DNA of 64,000 nt from Mastigias papua. Its lineage: Eukaryota; Cnidaria; Scyphozoa; Rhizostomeae; Mastigiidae. Below the pieces are notes generated by a model. It was not told the origin of the DNA. It saw only the letters and a program-made list of their open reading frames with translations, and did no database searches. Where the stretch lies: the NCBI GenBank assembly GCA_964019165.1, contig OZ025271.1:12751759-12815758 (forward strand), written 5' to 3'. This document shows, piece by piece, positions 23,682 to 57,879 of this stretch. How positions within the stretch are numbered: the first letter of the stretch is position 1; every line of letters begins with the position of its first letter. The position numbers and the translations under genes were made by a program.

Positions 23682-24651
23682 CTATGAGAAACGCTCTGAT
23701 TTGCGAATGAACCGAACCGTTGCTTCTACGATTTGTCGATTCTGGTTATATGTAAATATTTCTTGACCGTACAACGTGATTCGCACAAGAGCTTGATTTG
23801 GTAAATTTGAGATGTTATGAAATTGAAGTAATACGTTAATCGCACCAAGGAGATCACGTCTTTGTTCACTATAAGCATGACATTGCAGCAAGAAATGCTC
23901 AATGTCTTCAAACCCGTCGTTTATTAGACACATTGGGTCAACTGTGTCACGAACGTTGTGATTAAATTTATGTGACTTTAGTTTACTGATGCCTACTCTT
24001 AACTGGGTGAGAATGGAAAGACCTTTAGGATCATACATTCCATAGGTGGGTTTCTGGGGTGGCCAGATGAGAGAGAAGCGTTTGCTTTTGAATGAGGCTA
24101 TTTTAGGGGATTCCCAAATCGCAGGGGAGGGGGGAGATCGTTCCATTCTTTTAAATAATTTGGGAAGAAACTTGACTTAAAATGCTCAGTTCTAGCATTC
24201 ATTCGTCCAATGACAGCTTGGTTTCTAAGAGTAAAATTTGAACAACCACTTGATAGGATTTGATATCTTGTGTACTCATGTGTCAGTTTATTGATGAACT
24301 TAAATAAGACAACTAGGCATCTGTGTCATCTTCTATCATTCAAAGATTCCCCACCAAGCTCCTTGTAAATTTTGTTCCTTGAGGTTCCTTTCCGCGCCCC
24401 CGTTATTGCCAAGCCAGCAGAATACTGAACTGATTCGAGTCGCTCCATAAGGCTATGTAGCGTGACCCCATGGCTACAATCATTCACTTTCTGTGCGATA
24501 TGGTAAATGACGTCACCATAGTCAAGATGTGGACGTGCAGACGTACATAGAGTTTATAAAGTTCGTTTAGGGCTTGCCTTAATAAGTAGTTGGAGAAAAA
24601 CTTAACCAAGCCAATTCCAAGTCTCGCTTTGTTTATCACAGATTGGATATG
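23682..24651 (-). pseudogene. LINE B, 3' half: RT thumb and C-terminal tail
   Basis: The minus strand from 24650 reads HIQSVINKARLGIGLVKF, then a frameshift, RPHLDYGDVIYH, LMERLESVQYSAGLAITGA, a stop where Trp is usual (near 24335), EHFKSSFFPNYLKEWNDLPP, another frameshift, KIASFKSKRF, GLSILTQLRVGISKLKSHKF, and DGFEDIEHFLLQCHAYSEQR. The last part is the Cys/His C-terminal tail of an L2/CR1-like group of LINEs. Several frameshifts show it is dead. Its upstream half continues at 27772 on the other side of the inserted transposon. Confidence 0.75.
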
Positions 24652-24654
24652 TAT

Positions 24655-24862
24655 GGTGGCTCATCGTTGTCATTCACTTTTTTGCATGATACATTGAAAA
24701 GTTATTGTTTAAAAATAATGTTTGTTTTATTTTGTAATAATTTTATTTATTTTGTTTATTTTTTGTTTTACGTTTAGTCTCAGCAAAACTTGAAATATTT
24801 TTTTATTCATTGGTAACTATAACCGTGGCTCATCGTTGTCATTTTCAAACTGCAAACGAGGT
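24655..24862 (+). repeat. Left terminal inverted repeat, two motif copies
   Basis: The tip GGTGGCTCATCGTTGTCATT (24655) continues to TTTTTTGCATGATACATTG. A second copy of GTGGCTCATCGTTGTCATT starts at 24825 and runs into TTCAAACTGCAAACGAGG. The whole 208 bp pairs with 27548-27768. The two motif copies in the same orientation are likely transposase-binding sites (inference). Confidence 0.85.
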
Positions 24863-24911
24863 CATATACTAGTGCATGAGCCAGCAGTGAATCATCGAAG
24901 TTCCATTCATT

Positions 24912-26124
24912 ATGTCCAATAAGAGAAAGATATGGGATATGTACGAAAAGAAATGCTCAGAGAAAAGAAAAGGGGAACCATTAAAGAAGAAATCATGTTC
25001 TCCACTTTGTATAATGTTGCAGCGTATGGGTGCAGAGGCCAACCGATTAAAAAAATTCGAACCACTGGACACGCGGGATTTCAATCGAGAACATAACATC
25101 TGCTTGCGAGAAATTTTATGAGATGCCAAAGGGCTCTTGCGATGTTCTTCTAAGTGACAGGGGCCCGTCATGCTACCTCACAGAGCAGACTATTGGGGGA
25201 AAGGTTTATTTCATTCGATTCCTGGATCAAAAGGCAAAAATCTGCAACAGGGAAGAACGTGAGAGGATAGAAAATGCTGCATCTAGCACCTCACAACCCT
25301 CACTTGGAAAGCTGTCAGAAAGCAAATCAATTGCAGTTCTCCCCAGTGTGCCCTACACAGCATTTCCAAAGTCTGTTTCAGATGCAGATTTATTGCAGAC
25401 CCGGAAACTCATTGAGCCTCCAGATGTTCCATTAGTAACAATGACACTTGAAAGTTACAGTGTTTCTGATAAGAAATGGGACAAATTTGCCACTCTCGAT
25501 TTTCTCAAAGAAAATAGGCTATTCTCTGAAGGTGGATTCTGAGTTGCATACATTGCCACAACACAGCATGCAAACTACCGAAAGAAGTGAGTAATCAAGA
25601 AAGCTAAAGTAGATAAACTTGCTGATCTAGAAGCTGCTGTTAACCTTAACAATACACAGCACACAAGAAAACAGGGTCAAATGCACTCTGCTGTAAGAAG
25701 CATCTGCCAGAAATTTGCAAGAAAAGTCCCCCATGCATTTGGAAAATGCTTCAACTATAAGAAAGTATATTTGTCAACAATAAATGGTATACCAGTCACT
25801 GTAGAAGAGTTTATACCAGGTAACTTTGAAAAATATTCTAGCAATACAGTATTAATGGAACAAGCCAGATCTGATGAGCACCTGGTGATTATTCAACAAG
25901 CAGAATGTTTCATGCATTTCTCATATGAAATGACCAATAAAGAACTTCTGGTAGTTGATCTGCAAGGTGTAGTTTATGAATTGTGTGATCCAGAAATTGC
26001 AAGCACAGTTTTATTAGAAGATGGTGAACTGAATTTCTGTGCTGGAAATTTGTCACAAAATGCAATAGAAAACTTTCTTGATAATCACACATGCAACAAA
26101 TTTTGCGAAATGCTTGGACTTTAA
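24912..26124 (+). pseudogene. Transposon-borne alpha-kinase (two stops, one frameshift)
   Basis: The C-terminal half carries alpha-kinase hallmarks: VTVEEFIPGNFEKYS (about 25798), CFMHFSYEMTNKELLVVDLQG (near 25905-25970, in the place of the family's 'FSHFTYE...LLVVDLQGV'), a CAGNLSQNAI glycine-loop equivalent of GxGNxG, and HTCNKFCEMLGL, the H-x-C-x3-C zinc-binding end. The N-lobe VIKKAK lies at about 25594. Alpha-kinases (eEF2K, MHCK, TRPM7) phosphorylate Ser/Thr. The N-terminal part (MSNKRKIWDMYEKKCSEKRK) is Lys-rich and unrecognised. In-frame TGA stops occur at 25540 and 25591, and the frame changes near 25100 (or a small intron lies there). No stop interrupts the last 147 codons. It reads toward the transposase, with about 170 bp between the two genes. 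Confidence 0.75.
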
Positions 26125-26297
26125 AAAAGAATGGACAACTTTAGAAAAAGCTACAAGATTTATTGATTTAATATTACAGTTATCATTTTGAAAATTGAAA
26201 CAGCCTGCAATAATTTCTATATTAATTGTTCTGTTATTTTTTATGTATTTTACAGCATCCCCAAGTATTGCATATTGTCATGATTGTAATGCAGTCT

Positions 26298-27473
26298 TCA
26301 GTGAGGCATAAAACTTTTTAGCATCTTTGCTCCTAATTTTGTGGGATCAAGAATATATTGTTTGAACATCTGAAATGAATCACTGTCTGTAAATGCATCT
26401 TGATCAGTTAGAATACCAGATATTTCTGCAACCTCCTCTAATTGTTCAAATTGTAGAGGAATTCCCATTTTCTCTGCCCCATATCTCTCAGGAAATGAGA
26501 GTAGATGATTTGGTACTCCAGTTGGCAATTCCAAATCTTTCTGACTTCTTATTCTGTGATTATTCCAGTTGTTAACAAATATGTCACATTTCCTTTGAAG
26601 TACTGGCACATATACATAAGCAAGCATTTGCCTGTGTAAATCATTATGTGGGTCATACTGCTGCTCATAAAGCAAATCTTTCAATTGAGATTAGAAATAT
26701 TTTTCTAGCCGTTCGTGAAGATCTCTCCACCATCGCTCTATCTTGTTAGTGGTAGATGGCCCATAACACACAGAATCAGTGGGATCTTCAAAAAAGTCAT
26801 ACTGTGACATGAGATAGCTGTGAATTGTTGCCATCTTGCCGGCTTCTGTACCTTTGTCCATTCTCAGAAATCTGGGAGGCAAATTGAAGCTTCCAAGCAT
26901 AGAAATGTATAATTTGCCTACAACAAGTGGATCTGAGTTTGACGTTACGACAGAAAGGGAAAGGAGTCTTCAAAAGAAGGTGTCTATAAAGCCATATATT
27001 CCCAAGGGAAAAGTCCAGTTCTGGTATCCGCACAGTTTATCGTGACCATCGACAGAAACAACCCATAAAGGCCCCTTCGATGTGAAGTTTCCTTTCTCGC
27101 GAATCTTTCTTTTCTGCAACTTTCTTGAGGAGACGCCATCGGGATCAAGGTCTGCAAGAATGTTACGAACTAAATGCATTGGGACTTTTAAGTGGTACTG
27201 CATTCTTAACTTTTGAGTCATTGCTCTATAGCCTAACAGTTTCCCTGGACCATCAAGTTCAGCTCTGACAGCATCTTTCACCGCATCAAGGGTGGTTGTT
27301 TCATCTATATATTTGATGCCAAAGTAACGCATCCTCCTGTCTAACGAAGTGAGGCTCCATCGATAGTAGCTGTAATCACGTTGAATAAAATCCAAAATCT
27401 CTGATCTTTTAAGATTTTGGCAAACATACATTCTTATCTCCTCTGCCAGCTTACCGTCATTTGTCCAATTCAT
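26298..27473 (-). pseudogene. Integrase-like DDE transposase (two in-frame stops)
   Basis: One reading frame of about 392 codons from ATG at 27473 to the stop at 26298, broken only by a TGA near 26967 (after GFIDTFF) and a TAA near 26688. The N-terminus has a helix-turn-helix-like segment (residues 15-60, RRMRYFGIKY) and GYRAMTQKLRMQYHLKVP (81-98). The catalytic core shows D142 in WVVSVDGHDKL, a second Asp in PPRFLRMDKGTE and Glu in STTNKIERWW, the D-D-E of the retroviral-integrase-like family found in fish and invertebrate genomes as 'integrase core domain' proteins. It would cut and join the element ends in the nucleus. The C-terminal 130 residues are unrecognised. Confidence 0.8.
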
Positions 27474-27547
27474 GGCTTAACTTAAGTGCAAATATAACTA
27501 ACAAGCACAGGGAAGAACACGATTTCATAACATTGTCCGGAAAGATA

Positions 27548-27768
27548 GCCTCGTTTACAGTTTGAAAATGACAACGATGAGCCACGCGTACAGTTCTCAA
27601 CAAATAAAACAATTTTTTGAAAGCTTTTTGGAGAAACTAAAAGCAAACAAATAAAATAAAATAAAAGCGAATGCACTAAATTAATACAAAATGAAAAGTA
27701 AAATTATTTTGATACATAATAATTTCCAATGTATCATGCAAAAAATGCAATGACAACGATGAGCCACC
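27548..27768 (-). repeat. Right terminal inverted repeat, two motif copies
   Basis: The mirror of 24655-24862. The inner copy ends AATGACAACGATGAGCCAC at 27585 and the outer copy ends AATGACAACGATGAGCCACC at 27768. The outer 43 bp differ from the left tip at about two positions and the inner 38 bp at about two. The AT-rich part between them aligns only loosely with the left side. Confidence 0.85.
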
Positions 27769-27771
27769 ATA

Positions 27772-28760
27772 GGTATGACTGGAAGACTTCAATCGACTAT
27801 CAATCACGATACCTAAGTGGTTATGTCTATCAACTTTTTTTAACGGGTATATCATTCAAGAGAATACGTAGGTGGTCAATAGGGATCTTTTTTCAGAAAA
27901 TAACACTTCCACTGCGTGGTTTGGGTGGGCCATGATTAAAAGACATTCTCCAATCATATGCCCAGCGTATATGGGTTATGAGCAACTGAAAAAATAACGT
28001 ATCGTCAGCAAACAATTTAACATTGCATTTGAGCTCTGTTGTCAAATCGTTTATATAAGCAAGGAAAAAGAGAGGACCTAAAATAGACCCCTGGGTAACT
28101 CCTGCAGAGATTTTGACCCATTCAGATGTTTTGTCATATAATACTGTACATTGCATACGATCTGCCAAAAAAGCTTTGGATTTGTAACAGAAGCTCCCCA
28201 GATACGTCATTCTGCCGTAGTTTATAGATTAGTCCATCATGCCACACTCTATACAATGCTTTTGACATATCTAAATATACAGATCTTACATCCAACAGTG
28301 GGTTACAGTCGAATACAGCAAAAATAGAGTGAACAATTGAAGTCATCTGATTGATTTTGGAATCTCCAGTACGAATGCCAGATTGACTTGTTCTTAGCAT
28401 TTCATGAAAAGTGACGTGTTCATACGAAGACTTGAATATCAGTTTTTCCATTACTTTGCTCAGAATTGGAAGGTAGGAGATTAGACGATAATTCTGCTTA
28501 TGGCTTTTACTGTTCTTTTAGTGACCAGGAAGAACATTGGCTCTTTTCAGTTTTAGGATATGATGTCCGTCATCCATGTTCTCTGATCAAATGGTTGCAT
28601 TATTTATGCTCTTGTGATTCAATAATCTTAGATTCCCACCACATCCTACGTAAGTACTTGTGTTATATAAGGTTTTCATTACTTTTGAAATATTATCAAT
28701 TTTTAATATCAGTGGCTCCTATGGATACTTATCAAAAGATTCATGAAGATGAGTAGGATG
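27772..28760 (-). pseudogene. LINE B, 5' half: reverse transcriptase core
   Basis: Minus strand, upstream to downstream: LKLKRANVLPGH (28550), NYRLISYLPILSKVMEKLIF (28490), RTSQSGIRTGDSKINQ, VYLDMSKALYRVWHDGLIYK (the first catalytic block, with the usual Phe-Asp changed to Leu-Tyr), VTQGSILGPLFFLAYINDL, and the intact FADD box near 28008, then HLGIVIDSRLKSSSHTY at about 27790 where the transposon begins. Frames change near 28180 and 27980. Weaker similarity runs to about 28760. This is the palm of a CR1/L2-like RT whose thumb and tail lie at 23682-24651. Confidence 0.75.
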
Positions 28761-54679: not shown

Positions 54680-55515
54680 GTTGAAAAGTGGGTACTTCCC
54701 CCTGAGTACCCCCACCACTAGAGCCATGTCTACATCCTTACTATACATCTTCCTATTGTCTCTTTTCACCCTTAACAACCACCACATTCCAAACACAAAC
54801 TCTCTTCATACATTACATCAAAAGTCAAACTTAAATCTAATGGGTTTAAAGCTATAAAACACTTCCTAACTACTAAATAACTGTTGTCATTTGAAAACTA
54901 GGAAATCTCAAAGCAACTCTTTCTAAATCCATAATCTCCCCTTTTGAGATCTAATTTGATACAGGCAAAATCCCTAGATTCATATGTATATTTCAGAAAA
55001 ACAACCTGTTGCATGTAAAATGTTGGTTGTTTGATGTAAAAATATTTTAATCTATTCAAAACAGCAGGTATTATATTGGAAAATTGATAAATATAGTCAT
55101 TAAGACTATTGTCTAACTTATATACATTGATAAAATAGCCCTTCAGATTTTGTTGAAAGATCAATTGATTGTTGGATATAAATATTGCTCAAAGTCAAAA
55201 ACCAAAATCACCTTATAATTCTTGTCCTGTTATAAGTTCCACTTTGTCAATAATCCACTTACTTAAAATTAAACAACACATGAAATCCAAACAATTGAAT
55301 GCAAAAGTTGTTATTTTCCAATGAACCATTTAAATGTTTCACAAACATAATATCAAACTGTATTTCTCTTCTCTGAAATATTTGAATTGTAATGTTAATA
55401 AAATTATCAAATTACTAATTACCACATATATAATATACCATTTGCATTTAAATTCTTGAAAATGGTAATTTATGAATTAGTAAATAACAAATAATTAATT
55501 AGTAAATCATCTTAC
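54680..55515. other. Downstream intron of the NLR gene, probably
   Basis: AT-rich. If the donor at 55515 is used, this is intron sequence. A minus-strand frame (55164-54898, 88 codons, with AVLNRLKYFYIKQPTF) is open, but it has no good acceptor at a matching phase, so I do not claim it as an exon. Confidence 0.4.
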
Positions 55516-57879
55516 CCTCCTTTCTATGTCATCATCCAGTCTAGTAGTGCAACTGAGTATGTTCAATACCTTCATCATTAAATCTCCCTTCCGTCGCCTT
55601 TCTTCCATCATCTCCACCATCCTCTTCCACCATTCAATCTTAATGTCCAGTCCTATTAACTCAAACCTTTCGCATGACATCCCCCAATCGCATGCATTCT
55701 CAAAACTCTCATTTGTCTTCATTTGACATTCCCTTATGCGCAACAGTTCCAATTGCCGATCATTAGAACACGGTCCATTCAATTCATCATCCATGAACAC
55801 GCATTCCTCTATGAATACCCATCCACAATACCCACTCTGCTCTCCTCCTTTGAACTTCACTCGAATGGCATTCACAGTTGTTGTCATTCCGCGTAAACTG
55901 ATGCCAAAACGACCAATGCGAAAACGCTCCTTCACAGTCACTACGTCCAATTGTTCAATCTCATACACATAGATCCGCTCAAACTGAACATTTGCGAATG
56001 CCATTCGAATATCGTCCTCCTTCCATCCGCAACTTTCCAAGTGGCTACAAATCAGACACAGATTGTGTGTTGTTACTTCATCTGACCAAAACCCATCACT
56101 ATGGCATTTTCTAATAATTGACTTAATAAACTCCTTATCATTAAAATTCTTATTTAAAAAAAAAGTAATAATTTCAAATGATCTACTTAATTTAGTATCA
56201 TTATCCAACCCACACACATTTAACAATTCAATTACATCATCTAATAATTGTTTCTCATTTACTTCTTGTTTTAATCGTACAACATTCTTCAACATTTCTT
56301 TAATTATTCCTTCATATGAAAATCCTGACAATAAACGACATGCAAATGAGACAACTTCAATAAACCCTTTTTCCAAATTGTCCTTTATAATTTCCAATAA
56401 ATTCTTCATGCCTTTTTTACATATGTAAAGGGCTGAGAGAAATTCCATCAGTGATAAATGTTTAAATTGATACTTCTCTGTATAATTGTCTTTGACATCA
56501 ACAAACAAACTTTTAATAAATGTCTTCTCTTCATCAGTTCCCCCAAGAGTTGATTCAATGTTTCCTTCAAAAATAATCTTGTTTTCTTTAAGTAAATTAT
56601 AACAAAGTTCACTCAGGTAGGCCAATGTATTTGAATATTCTGTAAAAACTTGTGAGATTGTACTTATGTCTTGCCCTTTCTGTTTGTCAGCATGTTGTTT
56701 CAGCAATAGAAAAACAGTCCAACAATATAATTCAGTGTTGTTGAAAACCGCTTGCCCTTTCATCAAAATGGCCACACAGCAAAGTGTATTCAGAAACTGT
56801 GGCACATTCATGATGGGAAGATAACCCTTTGATGATGTTCTTGCCTTGTTTATATCAACTTTGTGATCTTCACGGGATGAGAATTTGTCAACATATTCAT
56901 CAATTTGATCCTCACTTAGTCCATTAATTTCCACTTTAAACAAACCACCCATGTTATTATAACCAGTTAGCTTGTGTTCGACGTGGGGTCTCCCAGTTAT
57001 TATAACTTTAGCCATACAATAGTTCCCATTAATATTAAGGAGGTCAAAAATGATTGAATCTTTTTCAGTTATGTCATAGAGCTCATCAAGGCCATCTACT
57101 ATAACCAAGACCCCTTCTCCATCTCCAAAATCATAATTAACTTTACTTTTAATAAATTCACCAAGGATTTCATGCTTCTTCAGTTCGGCCACTTTGTGGT
57201 CCTTGAAGTAATTCAAGTCTCTACATTCAAACATGACACACATTTTAAAGTTTTGATAAATGTCACCATTTGCCCATCCATAAGTCAACTGTTTGGCAAG
57301 AACAGATTTTCCCATTCCCGCAATGCCACGAATAAAAGTTACACGATTATCGTCATCAATTACTCGAGATATTTTAATATCATCACCTCTCATACCTTGA
57401 ACATGTGCAAAATGTTGTCTCGCTTCATCTCTGAAGTTATCCATCGTTGGTAATTCACGGTTTATCTTCAACTTAACGGCAAATTTATTGATATCTACTT
57501 CTTTCAGCTCTATTCTGTTATTGTTATCTACGCAATGAATTTCATGCATCTTGTACTGTTGTCTGTATTTCTTCTTTATTTCATCTGAAAGATAAATACA
57601 ATTTAGAAACCATTAAATGAGCAACAGACCTATATTTAAGAATTCATACAGATTAAGCCAGAACAAAGGGTCGCATTTGAGGGGCAGAGCAATATGAAAC
57701 GTTCAATGAGTCATTTTATAACTTCGCAAAAATGAATATTTTGAGAGTAAGGAATTAAGTTAAAGCCGGAAAACTCACTGGAAGATACTTAGTTTATCAA
57801 CAAGACAACCAAGGGTGCCAAGGCCAATTAGAGCAAGGGGGATAGAAATCAAGAAAGGACATCGTGAGTGTCTGGGCAT
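55516..57879 (-). CDS. NACHT-domain NLR immune receptor, two exons seen
   Basis: Exon 2 (57584-55516) starts after TTTATCTTTCAG| and encodes EIKKKYRQQYKMHEIHCVD, then a NACHT ATPase: Walker A GIAGMGKS and Walker B VLVIVDGLDEL, with sensor KVIITGRPHVE and the helical region MNVPQFLNTLCCVAILMKG. The C-terminal 300 residues include YQFKHLSLMEFLSALYICKK, typical of NLRs, but no clear leucine-rich repeats. The exon ends at AGG|GTAAGA, so LRR exons probably follow to the left; the stop just past it is intronic. A candidate exon 1 (57879-57789) gives MPRHSRCPFLISIPLALIGL then GTLGCLVDKL, a membrane-spanning segment, and joins in phase through the donor CTAA|GTATCT. NLRs oligomerise on sensing danger. 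No stop breaks exon 2. Confidence 0.8.

What the first reader, a model, noticed from the sequence alone, without database searches (positions are those of the whole stretch)
24652..27771. A DNA transposon that carries an alpha-kinase next to an integrase-like transposase
Seen: matching inverted ends, two convergent ORFs, clear DDE motifs (VDGHDK, RMDKGTE, NKIERWW) and alpha-kinase motifs (LLVVDLQG, HTCNKFC), all inside one insertion that splits a LINE. Known: alpha-kinases are rare host enzymes (eEF2K, TRPM6/7, MHCK), and integrase-like DDE proteins of this type are abundant but poorly named in invertebrates and fish. Inferred: the kinase is cargo that travels with the element and might act on host factors or on the transposase. 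I recall no named eukaryotic superfamily with this pair.
Basis: partly seen in the sequence, partly recalled or inferred. Interest (0 to 1): 0.92.

Follow-up and report, generated by a model that had tools for sequence, protein, structure and literature searches.

The report
IS3EU-type jumping gene carrying an alpha-kinase
This is a worn-out copy of a known kind of jumping gene (IS3EU) that carries its own protein kinase beside its transposase; in the same genome some distant relatives carry a ubiquitin-ligase-like gene in the same place, which suggests that such elements may come with a protein-modifying enzyme of their own.

Summary
24652-27771 is a 3,120-bp DNA transposon with about 210-bp inverted ends (TATGG..CCATA) and convergent alpha-kinase and integrase-like transposase genes, inside a LINE. 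This copy is dead: two in-frame stops per gene plus a kinase frameshift. Two more places on the contig share its flanks, so the three are one duplicated insertion; other copies have perfect 6-bp target duplications.

The pairing is regular: all 30 best-matching transposase loci examined (of 113 matches) have a convergent alpha-kinase match, two only as fragments. Ten near-identical copies of a sister family have different flanks, so the lineage moved recently.

[quoted passage not shown] PMC10045372).

Not found in print by my searches: the pairing as a rule in an animal-type genome, and a sister transposase clade (about 30% identical) with the same 12-bp tip and 6-bp duplications, where 5 of 7 loci examined have a HECT or HECT-like E3 ligase ORF in the convergent slot and none has a kinase. 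This suggests a slot for a protein-modifying enzyme. What the enzymes act on is untested.

The parts
24646..24651 (.). left target-site duplication GATATG
   Evidence: 5/6 match to 27772-27777; separate copies L017 and L019 have perfect 6-bp duplications
24652..24861 (+). left terminal inverted repeat, begins TATGGTGGCTCATCG
   Evidence: 78% identity to right end over 224 columns
24656..24674 (+). terminal copy of 19-bp motif GTGGCTCATCGTTGTCATT (proposed transposase site)
   Evidence: binding is inferred
24825..24843 (+). inner copy of the 19-bp motif, starting at base 174 from the tip
   Evidence: at similar depth on both sides in L015, L016, L017 and L019 (up to 3 mismatches), on one side in L020
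24912..26124 (+). alpha-kinase gene, broken: N-terminal piece 24912-25121 in another frame, then 25123-26124 with in-frame TGA at 25540-25542 and 25588-25590
   Evidence: relatives
25528..26106 (+). alpha-kinase domain (PF02816), with the ATP-type lysine (codon from 25597), DLQG motif (Asp codon from 25957) and the H-x-C-x3-C zinc-type motif
   Evidence: coordinates mapped by me from P0122; residue roles recalled
26298..27473 (-). integrase-like DDE transposase gene, broken by in-frame stops at 26970-26972 and 26691-26693
26736..27050 (-). catalytic triad: Asp 27048-27050 (VDGHDK), Asp 26856-26858 (RMDKGTE), Glu 26736-26738 (NKIERWW); D-63-D-39-E
   Evidence: coordinates mapped by me from P0001
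27549..27771 (-). right terminal inverted repeat, ends CGATGAGCCACCATA; 19-bp motif at 27749-27767 and 27567-27585
27772..27777 (.). right target-site duplication GGTATG
23682..28451 (-). LINE remnant split by the insertion (flanks 23682-24651 and 27778-28451)
   Evidence: RVT_1 piece just under cut-off, right flank only; joined flanks read through in one frame, by eye

Best explanation
A decayed member of the IS3EU (IS3EU/GingerRoot) superfamily of DNA transposons. Shown: 6-bp target duplication, TATGG..CCATA ends, convergent integrase-like DD39E transposase and alpha-kinase. Inferred: the transposase binds the 19-bp motifs (two per end), cuts out the element and joins it to a 6-bp staggered target; the kinase is a standard partner that raises transposition by phosphorylating protein, most likely a host chromatin or silencing factor (about 0.45), less likely the transposase itself (about 0.3). 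Part of a sister clade fills the same convergent slot with a HECT-like ubiquitin ligase, which fits an enzyme that removes or re-tunes a host protein. Identity as IS3EU-type: about 0.95; kinase as a functional partner rather than a passenger: about 0.75.
For: Ends and duplication. Perfect 6-bp duplications in copies L017 (AAAGTA) and L019 (GAGCTC). Kinase and transposase matches in 6 of 6 copies with both tips, 3.1-4.3 kb long. 30 of 30 transposase loci held (the best 30 of 113 matches) have a convergent alpha-kinase match within the 1.5 kb held on that side (L035 and L053 fragments only, L052 partial). Ten loci of one family: nine are 99.93-100% identical to the tenth over at least 2,957 bp, with different flanks. 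Among 42 kinases that I chose for length from 54 hits, K262, E331, N344 are in 42 of 42, D382, Q384, G385 in 41 (one gap), H368 in 39, zinc-type H425/C427/C431 in 36 (six gaps); among 58 transposases chosen from the 120 listed of 308 hits, D177 and D241 are in 58 of 58, E281 in 57. Folds: kinase model best matches TRPM7 and MHCK-A kinases, E=4e-17; transposase model matches TnsB, MuA, HIV integrase and IstA, E 3e-5 to 2e-4. Published IS3EU features.
Against: No kinase substrate, expression or transposition was tested. No IS3EU reference sequence (Repbase) could be compared, so membership rests on ends, duplication, gene pair and domain type, not on a shared tree. Copies within the genome show kinase dN/dS of 0.67-1.50 over 15 pairs, as expected of decaying copies, so selection on the kinase is argued only from conservation among divergent relatives. 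A distance comparison of 8 putative kinase/transposase pairs, 6 of them joined only by equal contig length, gave no correlation (r=-0.07, p=0.60). The 30 loci are not independent, and the transposase matches ranked between them and the distant clade were not examined for a kinase. Whether kinases occur without a transposase in this genome did not complete (genome search with P0122 was busy every time).
Confidence: 0.72

Rival explanations
1. The kinase acts on its own transposase: it phosphorylates the transposase or the end-bound complex to set timing (cell cycle) or copy number, like an internal regulator.
For: Regular linkage in convergent orientation, 30 of 30 loci examined.
Against: 7 of 7 sister loci examined show no kinase although their transposase is of the same type; 5 have a HECT or HECT-like ORF in the slot, 2 nothing recognised, so phosphorylation is not needed by the transposase type as such. 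An 8-pair distance test saw no co-divergence (weak).
Confidence: 0.28
2. The kinase is a passenger that merely rides along, or gives the host cell an advantage, without a part in transposition.
For: Transposons can carry passenger genes (recalled); copies within the genome decay with dN/dS near 1; no co-divergence seen.
Against: 30 of 30 loci examined, over several divergent families, keep at least a part of it, and active-site residues are kept at 33-83% overall identity; the pair is also in fungal IS3EU (PMC12730594).
Confidence: 0.12
3. A new eukaryotic transposon superfamily.
For: None beyond the absence of a Repbase comparison here.
Against: Ends, duplication length, gene pair and orientation match published IS3EU.
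Confidence: 0.03
4. Host alpha-kinase gene that happens to lie next to an unrelated transposon.
For: None.
Against: Both genes lie between the tips in copies with their own target duplications and are paired in 30 of 30 loci examined.
Confidence: 0.01

Closest known systems
IS3EU DNA transposons, TET+ families of rust fungi and Tuber (PMC12730594; passages read)
   Same: Alpha-kinase gene in opposite orientation to the transposase; for the rust families 6-bp target duplication and TIRs over 30 bp ending TAYGG..CCRTA
   Different: No TET/JBP gene was seen here (only the two genes match Pfam in this element); animal-type genome; the pairing was counted over 30 loci of one genome
IS3EU/GingerRoot as described in PMC10045372 (passages read)
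   Same: TA..TA termini, usually 6-bp duplication, no HHCC motif before the catalytic core, first catalytic Asp 100-300 residues from the N-terminus
   Different: That paper's main text does not contain the word kinase
Alpha-kinases TRPM7, MHCK-A, eEF2K
   Same: Fold, ATP-type lysine, D-x-Q-G motif, zinc-type motif
   Different: 21-26% identity to TRPM7 and MHCK-A chains, 17-18% to eEF2K; carries a conserved N-terminal stretch of about 90 residues with no Pfam match above cut-off in the two pieces tested
Sister elements with a HECT-like gene in this genome (L060/L064, L065/L061; one end seen in L057, L058, L063)
   Same: Tip TACGGTGGCCCA and perfect 6-bp duplication in the two with both ends seen, rva_4 transposase, convergent partner gene
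   Different: Partner is a HECT or HECT-like ORF, transposase about 30% identical to ours; no paper held contains both 'HECT' and 'IS3EU'

Membership tests
IS3EU/GingerRoot | TA..TA termini (TAYGG..CCRTA in rust TET+ families) | tested here: met
   TATGG..CCATA
IS3EU/GingerRoot | 6-bp target-site duplication | tested here: met
   L017 and L019 6/6; L020 5/6; window with L015 and L016 (one insertion) 5/6
IS3EU/GingerRoot | integrase-like DDE transposase, no HHCC upstream, first Asp 100-300 residues from N-terminus | tested here: met
   first Asp at residue 142 of the window protein (my mapping); H and C residues of P0001's N-terminus listed, no HHCC pattern by eye; rva_4
IS3EU/GingerRoot | alpha-kinase gene in opposite orientation to the transposase (fungal TET+ families) | tested here: met
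IS3EU/GingerRoot | transposase groups with reference IS3EU proteins in a tree | not testable with these tools
   no Repbase sequences at hand
IS3EU/GingerRoot | IS3-type HTH_21 before the core (recalled as an IS3 trait) | tested here: inconclusive
   P0001 E=0.094, under cut-off; sister transposase L057 E=9.2e-7, above cut-off; four more sister proteins under cut-off and one (L062) without a match
Alpha-kinase family | PF02816 with ATP lysine, D-x-Q-G and zinc ligands | tested here: met
   this copy itself is broken
HECT E3 ligase (sister elements' partner gene) | PF00632 match and catalytic-type Cys near the C-terminus | tested here: inconclusive
   L057 1.3e-9 and L063 5.2e-7 above cut-off, L058 4.6e-5 just under; L060 and L061 have no PF00632 match at E<=0.1 and rest on similarity to L057 (blastp 1.4e-15 and 2.7e-19); a profile of L057, L060 and L061 meets UBE3A's HECT domain at 2.9e-5; Cys motif read by eye

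The most novel reading that the evidence does not exclude
IS3EU-type elements have a slot, convergent with the transposase, that is filled by a protein-modifying enzyme: alpha-kinase in one transposase clade and HECT-like ubiquitin ligase in part of another, with the same tip and target duplication. The enzymes would be alternative answers to the same host control (for example a silencing or chromatin protein), as TET genes are proposed to be for DNA methylation in fungal relatives.
Probability: 0.5. Interest if true: 0.78.

Novelty: new member of a known kind. Interest (0 to 1): 0.57.

Why it matters
It indicates that in one animal-type genome the alpha-kinase is a regular part of this transposon clade, and that a sister clade often has a ubiquitin-ligase-like enzyme in the same position. 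That makes 'how do DNA transposons modify host proteins?' testable with two enzyme types in one genome, one of them in a family that moved very recently. It also warns that genes named TRPM6-like, eEF2K or myosin heavy chain kinase in coral, gorgonian and tunicate annotations (names seen among the relatives) may be transposon genes; I did not check those loci.

Tried and rejected
New superfamily: rejected once the IS3EU passages were read. Mosaic origin of L017 (kinase half close, transposase half far): withdrawn, because nucleotide identity to the window copy is even along the element (93-98%); the apparent divergence came from aligning across a frameshift, so the transposase dN/dS values with L017 are invalid. 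Eight-base target duplication: considered, not tested in a script; the 6-bp reading restores a LINE-like frame and fits L017 and L019. Relatives in viral contigs and in prokaryote genome contigs: none. Homology of the kinase's N-terminal stretch to the HECT-like proteins' N-terminus: not supported (hhalign probability 0.3, E=0.18). Co-divergence of kinase and transposase over 8 pairs: no correlation. Styx of Zymoseptoria (PMC10853768, passages) is said to descend from an IS3EU element with two proteins, but the passages seen do not name the second.

Full report
The thing itself. Window 24652-27771 is a 3,120-bp element with inverted ends. The ends begin TATGGTGGCTCATCG and are 78% alike over 224 columns. 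A 19-bp motif, GTGGCTCATCGTTGTCATT, starts at base 5 from each tip and again at base 174 (left) and 187 (right). The window has 4 matches to the 20-mer at up to 3 mismatches and 100 shuffles have none. The flanks GATATG and GGTATG agree in 5 of 6 bases. Joining the flanks with a single 6-bp copy gives a frame that reads straight through the site and looks LINE-like by eye; the LINE itself has stops and frameshifts elsewhere. An RVT_1 piece lies to the right (just under Pfam's cut-off).

The genes. The + strand gene is an alpha-kinase (PF02816, 2e-27); the - strand gene is an integrase-core (rva_4) transposase (2e-8). The two converge. Both are broken in this copy: two in-frame stops in each main frame, and the kinase N-terminus in another frame. 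Longer unbroken relatives are P0122 (kinase, 81% to the window) and P0001 (transposase, 85%). In 42 kinases that I chose for length from the 54 hits, the ATP-type lysine, Glu331 and Asn344 are invariant, the D-x-Q-G residues are kept in 41 (one gap), H368 in 39, and the zinc-type H, C, C in 36 (six gaps). In 58 transposases chosen from the 120 listed of 308 hits, both Asp are invariant and Glu is kept in 57; spacing is D-63-D-39-E in 47. The kinase model (mean pLDDT 80.8) matches TRPM7 and MHCK-A kinases. The transposase model (85.4) matches TnsB, MuA, retroviral integrases and IstA; by sequence alone it matched no solved structure at E<=1. The kinase protein also has a conserved N-terminal stretch of about 90 residues; two pieces tested have no Pfam match above cut-off.

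Copies in the genome. Named relatives are mostly cnidarian (Clytia, Exaiptasia, Dendronephthya, Actinostola, Stylophora, Paramuricea), with tunicates (Ciona, Phallusia) and Patella; a cnidarian host is my inference. The left-end sequence has 14 matches (the tool calls such counts lower bounds), which form 8 places. Six have both tips and match both proteins (L015, L016, L017, L019, L020, L022 = window; L020 over parts only). L021 is internally deleted (transposase, and a kinase N-terminal remnant seen as L053). L018 shows one end and no protein match. L015, L016 and the window match each other in pieces, with gaps, over the 10 kb of flank fetched on each side, and share the duplication GATATG/GGTATG, so they are one insertion. 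L017 has AAAGTA/AAAGTA, L019 GAGCTC/GAGCTC, L020 CATATA/CACATA. All six transposase frames carry stops (2 to 7 in the aligned stretch, the higher counts partly from frameshifts); the kinase frame is open over 357 codons in L015 and 417 in L017, stop to stop.

Is the kinase a rule? A whole-genome search with P0001 gave 113 matches (293 candidates, 97 scored; some matches are pieces of one copy). The best 30 were held as loci with 1.5 kb on each side. In 30 of 30 a kinase match (E<=1e-4, 13 kinase queries) lies convergent to the transposase; L035 and L053 show fragments only, L052 a part. The 30 are not independent: L027, L028 and L030 are the duplicated insertion, and by identity pattern I count roughly nine families, a grouping made by eye. 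The matches ranked between these 30 and the distant clade were not examined. One family has ten loci (L036-L044, L046), nine of them compared with L036: 99.93-100% alike over at least 2,957 bp, all starting at TATGGTGGCCCATCGTTATC with different flanks (only this end lies in the held loci). That is very recent movement. Elsewhere, six kinase/transposase hit pairs share a contig length and one pair has consecutive gene numbers (rows compared by eye); this is only suggestive, and an 8-pair distance test found no co-divergence. A search for kinases apart from transposases did not complete.

The sister clade. Of 12 listed matches with 29-33% identity to P0001, I fetched 7. A kinase match is absent in 7 of 7 at E<=0.01. 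In L057, L058 and L063 an ORF facing the transposase matches HECT (1.3e-9; 4.6e-5, just under cut-off; 5.2e-7). In L060 and L061 the facing ORF has no Pfam HECT hit but is similar to L057's (1.4e-15, 2.7e-19). So 5 of 7 have a HECT or HECT-like ORF. The other two do not: L059 has only short ORFs there, and L062's neighbour is a Copia-like pol, not a partner. A profile of the L057, L060 and L061 proteins meets UBE3A's HECT domain at 2.9e-5. Both ends were found for four: L059 (GTTCAG), L062 (GAATGA), L065/L061 (TAGAGA, 5,062 bp) and L060/L064 (CAAGAC), each with tip TACGGTGGCCCA and a perfect 6-bp duplication. In two of these four (L060/L064, L065/L061) the HECT-like ORF lies inside the ends. 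For the three loci with a direct HECT match, only the transposase-side tip was found (L058 with a mismatch). In an unrooted tree of 19 transposases the 8 kinase rows and the 6 sister rows (L063, in pieces, left out) are separated by fully supported branches. So the ends are shared while the partner enzyme differs.

Comparison with what is known. PMC12730594 (passages) says that all TET+ IS3EU families of fungi have a TET gene between transposase and alpha-kinase genes in opposite orientations, and gives 6-bp duplications and TAYGG..CCRTA ends for those of rusts. PMC10045372 (passages) gives TA..TA ends and usually 6-bp duplications for IS3EU and joins it with GingerRoot. PMC4469406 (one passage) notes an alpha-kinase family highly expanded in rusts, which fits. 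The pair is therefore published, and the element is a member of a known kind. Searches for 'alpha-kinase' with transposon terms (one search listed 20 of 115 papers) and for 'HECT' with 'IS3EU' (0 papers) showed no statement of the pairing in animals or of a HECT partner. The library lacks most subscription papers and Repbase was not available, so this absence is weak. A search for GingerRoot listed four papers, none of them its first description.

How it probably works. Transposase action is inferred from the family: end binding at the 19-bp motifs, cleavage, and 6-bp staggered joining. The kinase's active-site residues are kept in divergent relatives, so it most likely matters for the element. 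Because part of the sister clade has a ubiquitin-ligase-like enzyme in place of a kinase while keeping the transposase type and the ends, I favour a host target over the transposase, but not strongly. No substrate is known.

Noticed in passing
L057 418-1956 +, L058 2-1765 +, L063 1235-1891 +, L060 5085-7001 -, L061 39-1697 +: HECT or HECT-like ORF convergent with a distant rva_4 transposase, in the slot where the close clade has the alpha-kinase.
   Followed up: partly
L036-L044, L046: Ten near-identical copies of a sister kinase-bearing family at different sites, each with one in-frame TAG in the transposase stretch; recent spread with a shared stop could mean an intron, readthrough or supply in trans.
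   Followed up: no
window about 11500-37800 and L023-L026: Segmental duplication of this region at three places on contig C6; main matching pieces 81-97% alike, with gaps.
   Followed up: partly
window 55507-57549 -: NACHT-domain gene, 680-aa open frame.
   Followed up: no
L062 2798-6314: Element with tip TACGGTGGCCCACA and duplication GAATGA whose right part looks like an inverted copy of its transposase start.
   Followed up: no
L059 496-4791: Element with long inverted arms (366 nt, 90% complementary) in several shifted registers, as if built of short repeats; duplication GTTCAG.
   Followed up: no
kinase N-terminus, P0122 residues about 54-142: Conserved stretch without a Pfam name (QR..S, CD.L...GPSC, RF); a likeness to parts of fish HECT proteins is recalled only, and a comparison with the HECT-like proteins' N-terminus here was negative.
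   Followed up: partly
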